A stretch of 64,000 bases of DNA from Arthrobacter sp. ISL-85 (lineage in GTDB: Bacteria; Actinomycetota; Actinomycetes; Actinomycetales; Micrococcaceae), in assembly GCF_018613675.1 (NCBI RefSeq), contig NZ_JAGGPQ010000017.1, positions 1 to 64,000 of the forward strand, given 5' to 3'. A program made the translations under genes and the position numbers. Numbering within the stretch: position 1 is the stretch's first letter; each line of letters opens with the position of its first letter. The notes beneath the pieces were generated by a model that saw nothing but the letters and a program-made list of their open reading frames with translations, did not search any database and was not told the DNA's origin. Positions 46,816-52,892 of the stretch are shown one piece after another.

Positions 46816-47934
46816 CTAGGAAGTTGCCGGTGCCTTTGTATAGTCGGCACACAATTGGAGGAACCGGGTGTTGGCCTCGGGTTCCCCGATACTGACCCGT
46901 ACGCCTTCTCCCGCGAACGCCCGGACGGAGAGCGCGCGTGTCCCTGCCATCTCCGCGAAGGCCGCACTTTCAGCACCAAGGGCAAGCCAGACGAAGTTGC
47001 CTTGGGCATCAGGGATGGCCCAGCCGAGGTCCCGGAGCCCGGCGGTCAACCGCGCCCGCTCGTCCACGAGCTTTTGTACCCTTTCCACAACCTGCCCGTA
47101 ATTATCCAGGGAAACAATTGCTGCCTTTTCAGCTATCTGGGATACGGCGAAGGGGGTTGCGGCAACCCGCAGGTACTGAGTCAGTTCGGGGTGGGAGACG
47201 CTGTAGCCAACCCGGAGCCCTGCAAGGCCATGCGCTTTGGAAAAGGTCCGGAGCACCACCACGTTGGGGTATTTCCGGTAAAGGTCGATCCCGTCCACGG
47301 CGTCCCCGGCCCGCACAAACTCCTGGTAGGCCTCATCGATGACCACCACCACGTCTGCCGGAATGGATCGGATAAAAGCTTCGGTTTCGCCAGCGGTAAG
47401 GGCCGGGCCGGTGGGATTGTTGGGCGTGCAGAGCAGGATGACTTTGGTGCGCGCGCTTACGGCGGCGGCCATGGCGTCCAGGTCATGGCGCCCGTCGGCG
47501 GTCACCGGGATGCGAACGCTCTCGGCGCCTGCCAAACCCACACTTATGGGGTACGCCTCGAAGGAGCGCCACGCATAGATGACTTCGTCCGCCTTGCCGT
47601 CCTCGTTCTGGCCGGCAAAGGCGGCCAGAATCTGGTTCAGGGCGCCCAGACTTCCCGCTCCGGTGACGATGTCGGCGGCCGGTACGCCCAGGAACTCCGC
47701 GAGCGCCGCGCGGAGCTTGCTGCTCAGCGGGTCCGGGTACCGGTTGAAGTCTGTTTGGCCGGCTATGGCCTCAAGCACGGCCGGGATGGGCGGCAGCGGG
47801 TTTTCGTTGGAGGAGAGCTTGTAGCTGGCAAGACCGCTGACGGCGGCCGGCGGTTTTCCTGCCGCGTAGCGGGGCAGGCGGTCCAGCACCGGGCGCGGTG
47901 CGATCCCGCCCGCCCTGGTATCAGATGAAGTCAT
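46816..47934 (-). CDS. Histidinol-phosphate/aromatic aminotransferase
   Basis: A 372-residue fold-type-I aminotransferase of the HisC group. PLP marks: SSNENPLPP near 42, PNNPTG 171-176, Asp200 and Tyr203 in VIDEAYQEF, Lys233 in TFSKAHGLAGLR and the Arg near 345. Its position ahead of the branched-chain dehydrogenase operon suggests aromatic or branched-chain amino acid transamination (Pat-like) rather than histidine synthesis. ATG 47934 has GGAG two bases upstream; the open frame to 48192 is not protein-like. Confidence 0.88.
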   Translation of the reverse strand: MTSSDTRAGGIAPRPVLDRLPRYAAGKPPAAVSGLASYKLSSNENPLPPIPAVLEAIAGQTDFNRYPDPLSSKLRAALAEFLGVPAADIVTGAGSLGALNQILAAFAGQNEDGKADEVIYAWRSFEAYPISVGLAGAESVRIPVTADGRHDLDAMAAAVSARTKVILLCTPNNPTGPALTAGETEAFIRSIPADVVVVIDEAYQEFVRAGDAVDGIDLYRKYPNVVVLRTFSKAHGLAGLRVGYSVSHPELTQYLRVAATPFAVSQIAEKAAIVSLDNYGQVVERVQKLVDERARLTAGLRDLGWAIPDAQGNFVWLALGAESAAFAEMAGTRALSVRAFAGEGVRVSIGEPEANTRFLQLCADYTKAPATS

Positions 47935-48043
47935 GGCTCCTAGCCTACGTCCAAGCCCCCATGGGAATCCGGGGAGCGAACCGCCAAACACATCAGGTCT
48001 AACCGCCATCCACCCACGAGGGAAGGTATGGAAGCATGGTGCC

Positions 48044-48469
48044 ATGGGTTCATTCATCCTTCGGGTCATCGTCAATGCCGCAGCCCTTTGGGTGGCCAGC
48101 TGGATCCTGCCGGGAATGGACATCTCGAGCACGGCGGCATCTGATGTTGTGGCCAGGACCGGCATTTCGCAGGACACCGGGACCGTCGGCATTATCCTGG
48201 CCTACCTCTTTATCGGCCTCATTTTCGGCGTGGTCAACGCCTTCGTGCGGCCGCTGGTACGGCTCCTCGCGCTTCCCATTACCGTCCTGACACTTGGCCT
48301 GTTCGCCATCGTCATCAATGCCGCCATGCTTTACCTGACGGCCTGGATCAGCAGCTACACGCCGGTGCACCTCACCATCGATTCCTTCTTCTGGACTGCG
48401 CTCCTGGCCGCGATCATCATCTCCCTGGTGTCACTGGTGGCGGGTTTGCTGCCGGGCGGCAGGCGCTGA
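48044..48469 (+). CDS. Phage holin family membrane protein (DUF-type)
   Basis: A 141-residue protein with four hydrophobic helices and a GGRR tail. VNAFVRPLVRLLALPITVLTLGLFAIVINAAMLYLTAW (here cited in parts) matches Phage_holin_4 family proteins, which are widespread chromosomal membrane proteins and not proof of a prophage. Start ATG 48044; divergent from hisC-like gene. Confidence 0.83.
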   Translation: MGSFILRVIVNAAALWVASWILPGMDISSTAASDVVARTGISQDTGTVGIILAYLFIGLIFGVVNAFVRPLVRLLALPITVLTLGLFAIVINAAMLYLTAWISSYTPVHLTIDSFFWTALLAAIIISLVSLVAGLLPGGRR

Positions 48470-48695: not shown

Positions 48696-49604
48696 ATGAA
48701 GCCCATAAAATTGCTGCTCGCTGCCTGCCTGCTTTTTACCTTGCAGGCCAGCCCCGCGCACGCAGATACAGAGCCGACGCCGCTGAGCTCCGTTGGGCTG
48801 GGCAACGACATTTCGTGGCCTCAGTGCGGGCGGGTTCTTCCCGCGCCCCCGGCCTTCGCGATCGTGGGCGTGAACGGGGGACGGCCGGACACGGTTAACC
48901 CGTGCCTGGCTTCTCAACTGGCGTGGGCGGACCAGACCGCGGACGGAACCGCCGGCACACCGGCGGCGGTCTACGTCAATACCGCCGCAACGGGACCTGT
49001 GCCGTCCATGTGGTGGCCGGCAGACAACACCTACGGGGGCGCTGATGTCACCAACCCCTATGGTAGGTGCGACGACGCCGCGTCTCCGGCCTGCGCCTAC
49101 GTGCACGGCTACGGCATGGCCGCCACTGCCGCCGATGTCCTGCAGGAAACCGGGCACAGTGTGGCACACCGTATGTGGTGGCTCGATGTCGAGTTCGGAA
49201 ACAGCTGGTTATGGGACAGGACAGTCAATGCAGCCGAGCTGGAGGGCATGACGGCGTATCTGCAGGGCGCCGGAGCAGAAGTGGGCATCTACTCCACGGG
49301 GTACCAATTCAGCCAGATTGTGGGCGACGTCGGTCCCGGCAGCAATCTCTACAGACTTCAAAACTGGCTGGCGGGCGCCTATTCCGCAGAGTCAGCACAG
49401 GAGTATTGCGGGGGCGCCCCCTTGACGCCAGGCGGAACTGTCACCACGACACAGTTCACGGAAAACGACCTCGACTACAACTACCGGTGCCCCGCCGCCA
49501 CCGCCCCGGCACCGGCTCCACAGCCCACTCCGCAGCCCACGCCACCACCGGAAAAGACTCGCTCGAATCTCTACGCTGAACTGCACGCCGCCCAGATTTC
49601 ATGA
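48696..49604 (+). CDS. Secreted GH25-like hypothetical protein
   Basis: A 302-residue exported protein: signal peptide ending near AHA-D, a TIM-barrel-like core with GNDISWPQCG near residue 37, AAVYVNTAATGP, MWWLDVE and GIYSTGYQF, as in actinobacterial GH25/DUF1906-type proteins, then a Pro/Gln/Ala-rich linker and a short C-terminal tail. Acidic residues of a lysozyme-type active site (D...E) are present in DISW and LDVE but catalysis is unproven. The 226-base region before it holds no clear gene or riboswitch. Confidence 0.75.
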   Translation: MKPIKLLLAACLLFTLQASPAHADTEPTPLSSVGLGNDISWPQCGRVLPAPPAFAIVGVNGGRPDTVNPCLASQLAWADQTADGTAGTPAAVYVNTAATGPVPSMWWPADNTYGGADVTNPYGRCDDAASPACAYVHGYGMAATAADVLQETGHSVAHRMWWLDVEFGNSWLWDRTVNAAELEGMTAYLQGAGAEVGIYSTGYQFSQIVGDVGPGSNLYRLQNWLAGAYSAESAQEYCGGAPLTPGGTVTTTQFTENDLDYNYRCPAATAPAPAPQPTPQPTPPPEKTRSNLYAELHAAQIS

Positions 49605-49634: not shown

Positions 49635-50981
49635 TCACTTGGCACCCGGTTGCGCTTGCCCCGAAAAGGGATCCCTCCGGTCCATCCGAGGAGTGGGTGG
49701 TGAAGGCTTAGACAAGGAAAAGCGGGTGGCAACAGCAGCACCGCCGGTTCCCAAGACCCCACCCAGCACGGCGGTGGACTGCACCAGGGACGGATCCTTG
49801 CTGGCGCCCACCAGGCGCGCCGCATCCTCATAGCCAGTGAGGCGGTGTCCAGGCCCCAGGCCTGCATCTTCTCCCCCGCGCACGTAAAGGTCATCAGTCA
49901 CGGTCACGGTGACTTGATTCCGGGCGTCCTGGTTCGGTAGTCCATCACTGCCCGGCACCCAGTCCGTGCGGTGTTCCAGGTGCAGTGTGCTGACCTCCGG
50001 CGGAGGCGTTATGCGGGAAACGGGTGACCCGGCAGTCAGGACATATTTCATGCGGTACTCCCTGAGGAAGTCCTCATCTGCCGCCAGATTCATGGCGTGG
50101 ATACCGCCCTGGCTGTATCCCACGGCCACCACGTCCGCTCCCGGTTCCGCGCCGGCAGCCCGGAGGGCCTGGAGAACGGCGGCATTCACCTGCTCCGAAT
50201 TGCTGCCCATCCCGTCAACAATGCCGGAAAGATCGAAAGGATTCGTGCCTTCGTCGGCGTCGTTCACCTGCGTCCCGGGAACCACCACGATGTATGCCCT
50301 GCCGCCACTGGTGTCCACCTCGATGATTTCGATGTAGCCGCTGCCCCGCTCCTCGATCAGCCTGACCCGCTCCAGCAGCCCGGCAGGAGTGGCGTCGAGA
50401 TCGATGGGCATACTTTCTTCCCGACTGACCGTCACCGGACCGGGGCGCAGCGAGGGGATGAGCAAGCCAACCCCCGGTTTGATCATGGGAAGGACCGCCA
50501 CGGCATTGCCCAGCAGCGATTCAGTGGCATCACCGTTGAGGAAGCCTGTGCGCCAAAAGTCGACGTGCTTCTGAAGCTCGACCGCTGGTTTCGATAGGCC
50601 GGGCATCCACTGCATGTGGGCAGTGGATTCGGCCACCTCGTAATCCCACCTGCAACTGCGCACCTGCCCGCTGATCCGCTGCAGTTCCTTGCGCACTTTC
50701 TGGACCGCATCCCGTGCCTCCCCGACAGCAATAAGCGCGGCTGTTCCCGTGGAGCGGGGTTGATTCTGGTACGAACCAAGCTCCTGCCAGGCGCCGAAAA
50801 GCTCCGACTCGACGGCGCCGAGCCGTCCGGCGAGTCCATCAAGCTTCGCGGCTCCCGCCTCCAGTTCCTCCAGCTGAACGGTTATGCCGCCCACGCCTCC
50901 GGAAATTGTCAGGATGCCATCCGGGGGTGGCGGCGCAACATGGAGGGGACCGCCTGATCCGGAGGGGGTCGCGTCAGCCAT
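49635..50981 (-). CDS. Hydrolase with N-terminal WXG/LXG-like helical domain
   Basis: A 448-residue protein. Residues about 30-125 are long amphipathic helices of the WXG100/LXG type; residues 190-440 are an alpha/beta hydrolase with nucleophile Ser290 in GYSQGG, a probable acid in HRTDWVPG (Asp340) and His in GLGPGHRLTG. There is no Sec signal, so secretion, if any, would use a type VII route. It starts directly at the stop of the small WXG-like gene, with which it forms a two-gene operon. Target is unknown; a lipase/esterase activity is likely. Confidence 0.8.
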   Translation of the reverse strand: MADATPSGSGGPLHVAPPPPDGILTISGGVGGITVQLEELEAGAAKLDGLAGRLGAVESELFGAWQELGSYQNQPRSTGTAALIAVGEARDAVQKVRKELQRISGQVRSCRWDYEVAESTAHMQWMPGLSKPAVELQKHVDFWRTGFLNGDATESLLGNAVAVLPMIKPGVGLLIPSLRPGPVTVSREESMPIDLDATPAGLLERVRLIEERGSGYIEIIEVDTSGGRAYIVVVPGTQVNDADEGTNPFDLSGIVDGMGSNSEQVNAAVLQALRAAGAEPGADVVAVGYSQGGIHAMNLAADEDFLREYRMKYVLTAGSPVSRITPPPEVSTLHLEHRTDWVPGSDGLPNQDARNQVTVTVTDDLYVRGGEDAGLGPGHRLTGYEDAARLVGASKDPSLVQSTAVLGGVLGTGGAAVATRFSLSKPSPPTPRMDRRDPFSGQAQPGAK

Positions 50982-51283
50982 CAGATCCGTCCGTCAGCCG
51001 AACAATCAGCTGTCAGTGCTGCGCGCGCGTGGACGGCCACTGCCGCGGAAGCCTCCCGGATCCGGTCCAGCGCGCGCCGTACCGCCACCGCCTGCAGGCT
51101 CACGGAATCACGGTATGCCTGTCCAGCCGGTGATTCCCAGTCCACCAACTGAATTGCGTGGAATCCCGCCAGAACCTCTTCAGTCCTGTCGGAACACTGC
51201 GCCACCTTTCTGCCCACCTCCTGGACTCCAAGGCTGGCGCCCAGCCCGCTACCCCATATCCCGTCCATCGGATCGTTCCCCAT
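50981..51283 (-). CDS. WXG100-like small protein
   Basis: A 100-residue helical-hairpin protein with the W-x4-G type turn WESPAGQAYRD at 49-59 between two helices, as in WXG100/ESAT-6-like proteins. The stop and the start of the hydrolase gene share a base at 50981. It could be a chaperone or secretion partner of the hydrolase. No ESX core genes (EccC etc.) are seen. Confidence 0.75.
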   Translation of the reverse strand: MGNDPMDGIWGSGLGASLGVQEVGRKVAQCSDRTEEVLAGFHAIQLVDWESPAGQAYRDSVSLQAVAVRRALDRIREASAAVAVHARAALTADCSADGRI

Positions 51284-51449: not shown

Positions 51450-52892
51450 ATGCCTGAAACTGCCGCCACAGCTGATACCCGTACGCCCTCAGGACGCCTG
51501 GCCCTCGCCGCGTCACCGGAAAGAATTGCGCTCGGACCCCTCGACGGCCGTTACCAGCCCACAGTCGCGCCCCTCGTGGACTACCTGTCCGAAGCCGCGC
51601 TCAACCGGGACCGCGTGGCCGTCGAAGTCGAATGGCTTATCCACCTGACCAGCAACAACGTCCTTCCCGGCGCCGGTCCTTTGAGCGAAGAACAGCAGGA
51701 GCAGCTCCGCGCCATCGTCACCGAATTCGACGCCGCTTCCGTGGCGGAACTGGCTGAAATCGAAGCCGTCACAGTCCACGACGTCAAGGCGGTGGAGTAC
51801 TACATCGGCCGCCGCCTCCCCGCCATCGGCATCGAAAACCTGACTGCCATGGTCCACTTCGGCTGCACATCCGAGGACATCAACAACCTCTCCTATGCGC
51901 TGGGCGTCAAGGGCGCCGTGGAGGACGTGTGGCTGCCTGCAGCCCGCGCCCTCGTGGCCCAGATCAGCAGGATGGCGGAGGACAACCGGGCTGTTCCCAT
52001 GCTCTCCCGCACCCACGGCCAGCCGGCCACGCCCACCACTTTGGGCAAGGAACTGGCCGTCATCGCGCACCGCCTGACACGGCAGCTGGACCGCATCGCC
52101 AGGACCGAATACCTGGGCAAGATCAACGGCGCCACCGGCACCTATGCGGCCCACGTGGCCTCCGTCCCCGGCGCCGACTGGCAGCAGGTTTCCAGGTCGT
52201 TCGTGGAGGGCCTGGGCCTCACCTGGAACCCCCTCACCACCCAGATCGAAAGCCACGACTGGCAGGCCGAGCTCTACGCCGACGTGGCCCGCTTCAACCG
52301 CATCCTGCACAACGTCTGCACTGATGTCTGGAGCTACATCTCCATCGGCTACTTCGCGCAGATCCCGGTGGCCGGCGCAACCGGCTCGTCCACCATGCCG
52401 CACAAGGTCAATCCCATCCGCTTCGAGAACGCTGAGGCCAACCTCGAGATCTCCAACGGCCTGCTGGACACTTTGGCTGCCACCCTGGTGACCTCCCGGT
52501 GGCAGCGCGACCTCACCGACTCCTCCAGCCAGCGCAACATCGGGGTGGCGTTCGGCCACTCCCTGCTGGCCATCTCCAATGTGGCCAAGGGCCTGGAGCG
52601 CCTCGACGTGGCCGAGGACGTCCTGGCAGCGGACCTGGACACCAACTGGGAGGTCCTGGGCGAGGCCATCCAGATGGTCATGCGCGCCGAGGCGATTGCC
52701 GGCGTCGAGGGCATGGAAAACCCCTACGAGCGCCTCAAGGACCTCACCCGCGGCCAGCGCGTGGACGCTGCCCGCATGCAGGAGTTCGTCCAGGGCCTGG
52801 GCCTTTCCCCCGAGGCCGAAGCGCGGCTGCTCTCCCTCACGCCCGGAAAGTACACCGGCATCGCCAACCAGCTGGTGGACCACCTGAAGTAG
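51450..52892 (+). CDS. purB: Adenylosuccinate lyase
   Basis: Two steps in purine synthesis: SAICAR to AICAR and adenylosuccinate to AMP. 480 residues; fumarase-superfamily signature GATGSSTMPHKVNPIRFE with the catalytic loop serine, CTSEDINNLS and SRTHGQPATPTTLGKE. The ATG at 51450 follows ATGAAAGAATC; a weak ribosome site. Ends at a GC-rich hairpin. Confidence 0.97.
   Translation: MPETAATADTRTPSGRLALAASPERIALGPLDGRYQPTVAPLVDYLSEAALNRDRVAVEVEWLIHLTSNNVLPGAGPLSEEQQEQLRAIVTEFDAASVAELAEIEAVTVHDVKAVEYYIGRRLPAIGIENLTAMVHFGCTSEDINNLSYALGVKGAVEDVWLPAARALVAQISRMAEDNRAVPMLSRTHGQPATPTTLGKELAVIAHRLTRQLDRIARTEYLGKINGATGTYAAHVASVPGADWQQVSRSFVEGLGLTWNPLTTQIESHDWQAELYADVARFNRILHNVCTDVWSYISIGYFAQIPVAGATGSSTMPHKVNPIRFENAEANLEISNGLLDTLAATLVTSRWQRDLTDSSSQRNIGVAFGHSLLAISNVAKGLERLDVAEDVLAADLDTNWEVLGEAIQMVMRAEAIAGVEGMENPYERLKDLTRGQRVDAARMQEFVQGLGLSPEAEARLLSLTPGKYTGIANQLVDHLK

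What the first reader, a model, noticed from the sequence alone, without database searches (positions are those of the whole stretch)
49635..51283. WXG100-like protein coupled to a hydrolase with an N-terminal WXG-type domain
A 100-residue WXG100-like gene shares its last base with the start of a hydrolase that itself carries long N-terminal helices of WXG/LXG type. This is the form of a type VII secretion substrate and its partner, with a lipase-like effector. No ESX core or immunity gene is visible, so it could be an orphan effector module or a solitary secreted esterase.
Basis: partly seen in the sequence, partly recalled or inferred. Interest (0 to 1): 0.6.

Follow-up and report, generated by a model that had tools for sequence, protein, structure and literature searches.

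The report
Lipase-like cargo with secretion partner
Two joined genes in a soil bacterium encode a lipase-like enzyme and a small helper that together carry the export tag of the type VII secretion machine; the pair looks like an old, steadily inherited cargo of that machine rather than a weapon.

Summary
A 100-aa helical hairpin (50981-51283, -) overlaps by one base a 448-aa serine hydrolase (49635-50981, -) whose first 130 residues form a second, EsxB-like hairpin. The enzyme's hairpin carries YxxxD/E (58 of 58 aligned loci; 18 of 19 testable loci of other families) and the partner an invariant turn tryptophan (58 of 58): the two halves of a type VII export signal. The genome encodes two EssC-like ATPases elsewhere. 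Over 248 genomes of the order, the hydrolase is missing in 13 of 17 without an EssC-like ATPase and in 28 of 231 with one. A sister group of nine hydrolases lacks motif and partner, has W-x-G in its own hairpin, and in seven of nine follows an EspG-like chaperone gene. The pair is in 61 of 61 genus genomes, beside purB in 37 of 37 loci tested, under purifying selection, with no recognised immunity gene. Best reading: a conserved type VII cargo enzyme, not a polymorphic toxin. Export, activity, substrate and the ATPase used are untested.

The parts
50981..51283 (-). small partner gene, 100 aa, helical hairpin (helices 6-46 and 52-96), W in the turn
51122..51139 (-). W49-E-S-P-A-G, tryptophan half of the proposed composite signal
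   Evidence: W, S and A invariant in 58 of 58, P 54, G 56
49635..50981 (-). serine hydrolase gene, 448 aa, N-terminal EsxB/PE-like hairpin fused to a lipase-like alpha/beta hydrolase
50592..50897 (-). N-terminal helical hairpin (about residues 29-130)
   Evidence: AlphaFold2 helices 33-73 and 76-124; profile match to EsxB, E 2.3e-5
50628..50642 (-). Y114-E-V-A-E118, YxxxD/E export motif
   Evidence: Y 58 of 58, E 55 and D 3 of 58; 18 of 19 testable distant loci
49710..50432 (-). catalytic domain (about residues 184-424), lipase-like alpha/beta hydrolase
50112..50114 (-). Ser290, proposed nucleophile in G-Y-S-Q-G-G
   Evidence: 58 of 58
49962..49964 (-). Asp340, proposed triad member
   Evidence: 58 of 58
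49845..49847 (-). His379, proposed triad member
   Evidence: 58 of 58
47933..48469 (+). PF04020 four-TM protein, conserved convergent neighbour (not claimed to be part of the mechanism)
   Evidence: Pfam E 1.4e-27; within 5 kb in 47 of 90 genomes with both hits listed, all 47 convergent
51450..52892 (+). purB (adenylosuccinate lyase), conserved flanking gene on the other side
   Evidence: beside the pair in 37 of 37 genus loci tested

Best explanation
The two genes make one type VII secretion cargo. Step 1 (inferred): the 100-aa hairpin and the hydrolase's N-terminal hairpin pair into an Esx- or PE/PPE-like four-helix bundle, which brings the partner's turn tryptophan (W49) next to the hydrolase's YxxxE (114-118) and so forms the composite export signal. 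Step 2 (inferred, with comparative support): an EssC/EccC-type ATPase encoded elsewhere in the genome recognises the signal and exports the complex. Step 3 (inferred): outside the membrane the Ser290-Asp340-His379 hydrolase acts on an ester of the cell's own envelope or surroundings (lipid, lipoglycan or polymer). Because the pair is conserved, vertically inherited at one site and has no recognised immunity gene, it is most likely a standing physiological enzyme and not a polymorphic toxin. Shown here: gene anatomy, invariance of both half-signals and of the triad, EsxB likeness, ATPases in the genome, co-absence with the ATPase, and an EspG-like chaperone gene beside a sister group. Not shown: pairing, export, activity, substrate, and which of the two ATPases is used.
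For: Coupled partner upstream in 58 of 59 loci. YxxxD/E at one place in 58 of 58, in 78 of 78 readable of 80 named loci, partly the same genomes, and in 18 of 19 testable of 20 loci that I chose from other families; shuffled N-domains have it in that 25-residue place in 5%. Partner W in 58 of 58. EsxB/CFP-10 is the best PDB match of the hydrolase profile, motif on motif; partner members match T7SS_signal PF21725 (12 of 25) and PPE (3 of 25, best E 1.6e-4) at E<=0.01. Contrast in 44 further loci: all 31 with an HMM-detected partner have YxxxD/E; of 13 without, 4 have YxxxD/E and, by reading, an upstream frame with a W motif; 9 have neither but carry W-x-G in their own hairpin, and 7 of these 9, against none of the other 35 loci, have an EspG-like gene (one over the PF14011 cut-off, six by iterated profile from it). 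Own genome has EssC-like ATPases (549 and 289 bits to TIGR03928, both under its cut-off of 778) and a WXG100 protein over its cut-off. Co-absence: 13 of 17 ATPase-less against 28 of 231 ATPase-bearing genomes lack the hydrolase (p 1.7e-8); in genomes up to 2.4 Mb 12 of 13 against 2 of 29, where the control gene PF04020 shows 6 of 13 against 15 of 29. 61 of 61 genus genomes; purB beside it in 37 of 37, distance correlation 0.69.
Against: No EssC-like gene within the stretches of up to about 10 kb on each side in 20 distant loci, and the partner HMM hit only 13 of those 20. Four ATPase-less genomes keep a hydrolase hit (G218, G237, G388, G400; the first three are incomplete or highly fragmented, G400 is not), and 28 ATPase-bearing genomes lack it. 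G203, ATPase-less by the same search, has a sister-type hydrolase with an EspG-like gene. Over all 248 genomes the control PF04020 is depleted too (8 of 17 against 35 of 231, p 0.003), so genome reduction contributes; genomes are related, so p-values overstate; the 2.4 Mb limit was set after seeing the data; hydrolase hits were not sorted into the two types in the order-wide counts. 8 of 58 enzymes also hold a W-x-G in the first 130 residues and one sister-type protein has a YxxxD near the end of its hairpin. Foldseek gives no match at E<=0.001 for either model; VIA Z of about 9-10 is modest for a helical hairpin. Two of 44 loci (L204, L207) have no His at the aligned triad place.
Confidence: 0.7

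Rival explanations
1. It is an antibacterial lipase toxin exported by type VII secretion, as TslA is in staphylococci, with a distant or intrinsic means of self-protection.
For: Lipase-like fold, partner gene, fast divergence (median protein distance 0.50 against 0.07 for purB).
Against: No recognised immunity gene: the downstream neighbour is often the convergent PF04020 gene or, in the window's lineage, a 302-aa protein; one site, present in 61 of 61 genus genomes, distances that follow purB; the same catalytic domain in all 58 aligned loci.
Confidence: 0.15
2. A cytosolic or membrane-bound hydrolase whose hairpin domain and partner regulate it; no secretion.
For: No EssC-like gene beside it; a hydrolase hit without the ATPase in G400, a 99% complete genome.
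Against: Invariance of Y and D/E in an otherwise poorly conserved domain, EsxB likeness, co-absence with the ATPase, EspG-like gene beside the sister group.
Confidence: 0.12
3. The co-absence with EssC-like ATPases only reflects genome reduction, and the pair is tied to no particular machine.
For: PF04020 is depleted too over all genomes (8 of 17 against 35 of 231); of the 17 ATPase-less genomes, 8 are of family f3 and 3 of f4.
Against: In genomes up to 2.4 Mb the hydrolase splits 12 of 13 against 2 of 29 and PF04020 does not (6 of 13 against 15 of 29, p 1.0). Seven ATPase-less genomes keep PF04020 but lack the hydrolase (G209, G283, G296, G322, G396, G406, G426).
Confidence: 0.1

Closest known systems
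LipY and other PE/PPE-linked lipases and hydrolases of mycobacteria
   Same: N-terminal helical domain with YxxxD/E ahead of a hydrolase; in PE/PPE pairs the WxG sits in the partner (passages of PMC4536007 and PMC7028111).
   Different: No PE match in the window hydrolase or in 30 family members at E<=0.01; here a dedicated partner is coupled to the enzyme, whereas LipY is said to have little evidence for a PPE partner (passage of PMC4536007); another host group.
EsxA/EsxB (ESAT-6/CFP-10) pairs
   Same: Two neighbouring small hairpins; the hydrolase's hairpin matches EsxB with YxxxE on YxxxD.
   Different: One half is fused to an enzyme.
TslA with TlaA1/TlaA2 and TilA (type VIIb lipase toxin)
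   Same: Type VII cargo with a lipase domain, a helical targeting domain and small partners (abstract and passages of PMC10730906).
   Different: TslA has the reverse domain order, two partners and an immunity lipoprotein; here the order is forward, with one partner and no recognised immunity gene.
T7SSd/T7SSe of Garrett et al. 2024
   Same: The genome's C35 locus has an FHA-bearing EssC-like ATPase with a kinase, a PP2C phosphatase and FHA proteins, as described for these subtypes (PMC11217815: abstract, sections 9 and 15, passages).
   Different: The genome's best WXG100 hit is on another contig; the paper's main text has no 'Arthrobacter' or 'Micrococc'.

Membership tests
Split-signal type VII substrate pair (Esx or PE/PPE type) | YxxxD/E after the helical hairpin of one partner | tested here: met
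   58 of 58; 18 of 19 testable distant loci
Split-signal type VII substrate pair (Esx or PE/PPE type) | W-x-G in the turn of the other partner | tested here: inconclusive
   W 58 of 58, but followed by x-S-x-A instead of a strict x-G in these 58 loci
Split-signal type VII substrate pair (Esx or PE/PPE type) | adjacent, coupled genes | tested here: met
   58 of 59 by HMM; 51 of 58 with 1- or 4-base overlap
Split-signal type VII substrate pair (Esx or PE/PPE type) | heterodimer and EssC/EccC-dependent export | not testable with these tools
WXG100 family (PF06013) | small protein over Pfam's gathering score | tested here: not met
   no match at E<=1 for the window protein; 1 of 25 members at E 0.0034
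LXG toxins | LXG domain in the hydrolase's N-terminus | tested here: not met
   no LXG family among the matches at E<=1
PE / PPE families | PE domain in the hydrolase, PPE domain in the partner | tested here: not met
   no PE match; 3 of 25 partners match PPE, best E 1.6e-4, the window's own partner not
Polymorphic type VII toxin | immunity gene next to the toxin domain | tested here: not met
   by reading neighbours: convergent PF04020, or a 302-aa protein in the window's lineage; an unknown kind of immunity gene cannot be excluded
Polymorphic type VII toxin | toxicity | not testable with these tools
   needs expression assays
Serine hydrolase of alpha/beta fold (lipase-like) | nucleophile elbow and Ser-Asp-His triad | tested here: met
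   58 of 58, 20 of 20 distant loci by alignment; 42 of 44 others have the His; fungal lipases and feruloyl esterase at Z 9-10
Serine hydrolase of alpha/beta fold (lipase-like) | esterase or lipase activity | not testable with these tools
   needs assay
T7SSd (for the C35 ATPase locus) | FHA-bearing TsdC and kinase TsdD at one locus | tested here: met
   FHA and FtsK/SpoIIIE domains; Pkinase E 1.2e-40
T7SSd (for the C35 ATPase locus) | TsdA, TsdH and TsdI at the locus | not tested
   best WXG100 hit is on contig C37; TsdH and TsdI were not searched

The most novel reading that the evidence does not exclude
This pair is a core, order-wide cargo of the type VII machinery of Micrococcales-like Actinomycetota: a standing envelope lipase or esterase. 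One enzyme family comes with two loading schemes: type A, enzyme with YxxxD/E plus a coupled W-bearing partner; type B, enzyme with its own W-x-G plus a coupled EspG-like chaperone gene. That would mean type VII secretion in these bacteria mainly serves ordinary envelope physiology, and it gives a natural paired set for taking the export signal and its chaperone apart.
Probability: 0.45. Interest if true: 0.75.

Novelty: new variant of a known kind. Interest (0 to 1): 0.55.

Why it matters
Type VII secretion is known mostly from mycobacteria and Bacillota, as a virulence or killing device (own knowledge). A conserved, vertically inherited, non-toxin-like enzyme cargo in all 61 genomes sampled of a soil genus would point to a basic role. 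It also offers a harmless host in which the composite signal, the choice between two EssC-like ATPases and the cargo's substrate can be tested. The listings of five paper searches, in one open-access library, showed no paper that by title or abstract start describes this family.

Tried and rejected
The order-wide search with alignment A1 failed twice on the machine; a single-protein query was used instead, so weak relatives may be missed. Foldseek against PDB was not decisive. An EssC-like gene beside the hydrolase was sought in 20 distant loci and not found. Family names considered for the hydrolase and not adopted: LXG, PE, cutinase, Abhydrolase. My first description of the sister group as having no partner gene was wrong: a later check found an EspG-like gene upstream in 7 of 9 (none found in L201, L202). 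The two groups were not read with equal care at first: four type A partners missed by the HMM (L211, L214, L215, L219) were accepted by reading upstream frames with a W motif, while W-bearing frames upstream of seven of nine type B genes were set aside as not partner-like; several of these frames are the EspG-like genes. The 44 loci were chosen by me, and include two loci each from G078 and G111 and three (L231-L233) picked because they looked like the second type, so their numbers are no frequencies. Which ATPase is used stayed open: the C35 ATPase is conserved at 66-67% identity in 5 of 7 sampled genomes of genus g26, all 7 of which lack type A, and no C3-type ATPase was recognised there; but other genomes have hydrolase hits without a recognisable C3 type, so this is only a lead. 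One search used coordinates transcribed from the listed rows (143 of 207 and 150 of 205 genomes with hits); 43 of its 90 genomes do not have the two genes close together.

Full report
What is there. On the minus strand a 100-aa ORF (50981-51283) ends on the first base of a 448-aa ORF (49635-50981). The genome is Pseudarthrobacter/Arthrobacter-like: the 80 named loci found with the hydrolase family are nearly all titled Pseudarthrobacter or Arthrobacter. AlphaFold2 models show the small protein as a helical hairpin (helices 6-46 and 52-96, mean pLDDT 83.9) and the large one as a hairpin (33-73 and 76-124), a low-confidence linker and an alpha/beta hydrolase (mean pLDDT 81.7).

It is conserved as a unit. 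The hydrolase query matches 61 of 61 genomes of the genus, the window's included, and 139 of 149 of the family at E<=0.001 (some of the weaker matches are the sister type below). Of 59 loci (the best-scoring 30 and 29 more), 58 have a recognisable partner directly upstream by HMM; in L051 it lay outside the stretch searched. Overlaps are 1 base in 32 and 4 bases in 19 of 58. Synonymous changes dominate (dN/dS 0.11-0.17 in 8 comparisons). purB lies beside the pair in 37 of 37 genus loci tested, and hydrolase distances follow purB distances (Spearman 0.69 over 595 pairs of 35 loci; two with short purB stretches dropped), which argues for vertical inheritance at one site. The hydrolase nevertheless changes fast (median distance 0.50 against 0.07).

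It carries a split signal. In the hydrolase's hairpin Y114 is invariant and position 118 is E (55) or D (3) in 58 of 58 loci. The motif recurs in 78 of 78 readable of 80 named loci, partly the same genomes, and in 18 of 19 testable of 20 loci chosen from other families of the order (L182 lacks the Y, L179 is cut by its contig end). Shuffled N-domains have such a motif in that place in 5%. The partner has an invariant tryptophan in the turn (W-x-S-x-A, 58 of 58) and YxxxD/E near its C-terminus in only 1 of 58. In the 20 distant loci the partner HMM finds 13. A profile of the hydrolase finds EsxB/CFP-10 as its best match among PDB chains (E 2.3e-5), with YxxxE on YxxxD. Partner members match Pfam T7SS_signal (12 of 25) and PPE (3 of 25). 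That YxxxD/E in one partner and WxG in the other form a joint signal is described for mycobacterial pairs (passages of PMC4536007 and PMC7028111).

Two types in one family. Among 44 further loci (and four earlier ones; chosen by me, some because they looked different), all 31 with an HMM-detected partner (E<=0.1, at the 5' end of the hydrolase) have YxxxD/E. Of the 13 without, four have YxxxD/E and, by reading, an upstream frame with a W motif. Nine have no YxxxD/E at the aligned place and carry W-x-G in their own hairpin (one of them, L236, has a YxxxD near the hairpin's end). In seven of these nine, and in none of the other 35, the locus holds an EspG-like gene upstream: in L200 it passes Pfam's EspG cut-off (E 5e-7), the six others join it in an iterated profile search. 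EspG is a type VII chaperone that binds PPE proteins (passages of PMC7028111). So type A brings its own partner, and type B appears to bring a chaperone gene.

The machine exists in the genome. The window's genome encodes a 1481-aa FHA-FtsK/SpoIIIE protein (549 bits to EssC model TIGR03928, cut-off 778) in a locus with a kinase, a PP2C phosphatase and FHA proteins, a second 1360-aa FHA-FtsK/SpoIIIE protein (289 bits), and a WXG100 protein over its cut-off. The first locus resembles T7SSd/T7SSe of Garrett et al. (PMC11217815: abstract, sections 9 and 15, passages).

Presence and absence. Over the same 248 genomes of the order the hydrolase query matches 207. The EssC query separates 231 genomes (best E 1.1e-39 or lower) from 17 with only weak matches (best E 2.2e-16 or higher). 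The hydrolase is absent in 13 of the 17 and 28 of the 231 (Fisher p 1.7e-8); in genomes at least 90% complete and at most 5% contaminated, in 11 of 13 and 24 of 220; in genomes up to 2.4 Mb (a limit set after seeing the data) in 12 of 13 and 2 of 29. The control gene PF04020 is absent in 8 of 17 and 35 of 231 (p 0.003), but in the small genomes in 6 of 13 and 15 of 29 (p 1.0). Genome reduction therefore explains part of the overall trend, not the contrast within small genomes. Against the link: G218, G237, G388 and G400 keep a hydrolase hit without the ATPase (the first three are incomplete or highly fragmented); in the family set 3 of 4 ATPase-less genomes lack the hydrolase and the fourth, G203, has type B with an EspG-like gene; the genomes are related. 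Of 17 stretches around PF04020 fetched to look for empty sites, mostly from genomes without a hydrolase hit, 8 also hold purB nearby; between the two genes no frame matches the hydrolase or partner profile better than E 0.05, and in G085, G217 and G279 the gap is under 150 bases.

The enzyme. Ser290, Asp340 and His379 are invariant in 58 of 58 and align in 20 of 20 distant loci; L204 and L207, of 44 others, lack the His at the aligned place. VIA-align gives fungal lipases and feruloyl esterase at Z about 9-10 (the class name 'class 3 lipase' is recalled) and EsxA/EsxB for the hairpin at Z about 8.6-9.4; Foldseek had no match at E<=0.001. No Pfam family claims the window protein; only scattered weak alpha/beta-hydrolase matches appear among 30 members.

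What it most likely does. The best reading is a split-signal cargo of a type VII system that acts outside the membrane as an esterase or lipase. Core presence, vertical inheritance and the lack of a recognised immunity gene speak for physiology and against a polymorphic toxin such as TslA, whose locus has reverse order, two partners and an immunity lipoprotein (PMC10730906, abstract and passages). Pairing, export, activity, substrate and the choice of ATPase remain untested.

Noticed in passing
window 47933-48469 (+): PF04020 four-TM protein lies within 5 kb of the hydrolase in 47 of 90 genomes of the order where both hits were listed, all 47 convergent; hisC-like gene, PF04020, [pair] and purB look like an old neighbourhood.
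   Followed up: partly
window 48696-49604 (+): 302-aa protein, signal-peptide-like start by eye, no Pfam match beyond chance; it lies between the pair and PF04020 in the window's lineage.
   Followed up: no
L067 53-11635: Locus with zinc-ribbon/RDD/FHA protein, PP2C phosphatase, FHA protein, kinase and 1481-aa FHA-FtsK/SpoIIIE ATPase; resembles T7SSd/T7SSe in a group not named in the 2024 survey's main text.
   Followed up: partly
L071 7614-11696 (-): Second FHA-FtsK/SpoIIIE ATPase, faster evolving than the first (72% against 97% identity to G098).
   Followed up: partly
L069 9317-10141 (-) and L070 9180-9521 (+): Two further proteins with WXG100 matches under the cut-off (E 3.8e-4 and 2.1e-5), possible other type VII substrates.
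   Followed up: no
L199, L200, L222, L231, L232, L233, L236: Type B hydrolases (W-x-G in the fused hairpin) behind an EspG-like gene; one over the PF14011 cut-off, six by iterated profile. EspG outside mycobacteria, coupled to an enzyme, deserves its own study.
   Followed up: partly
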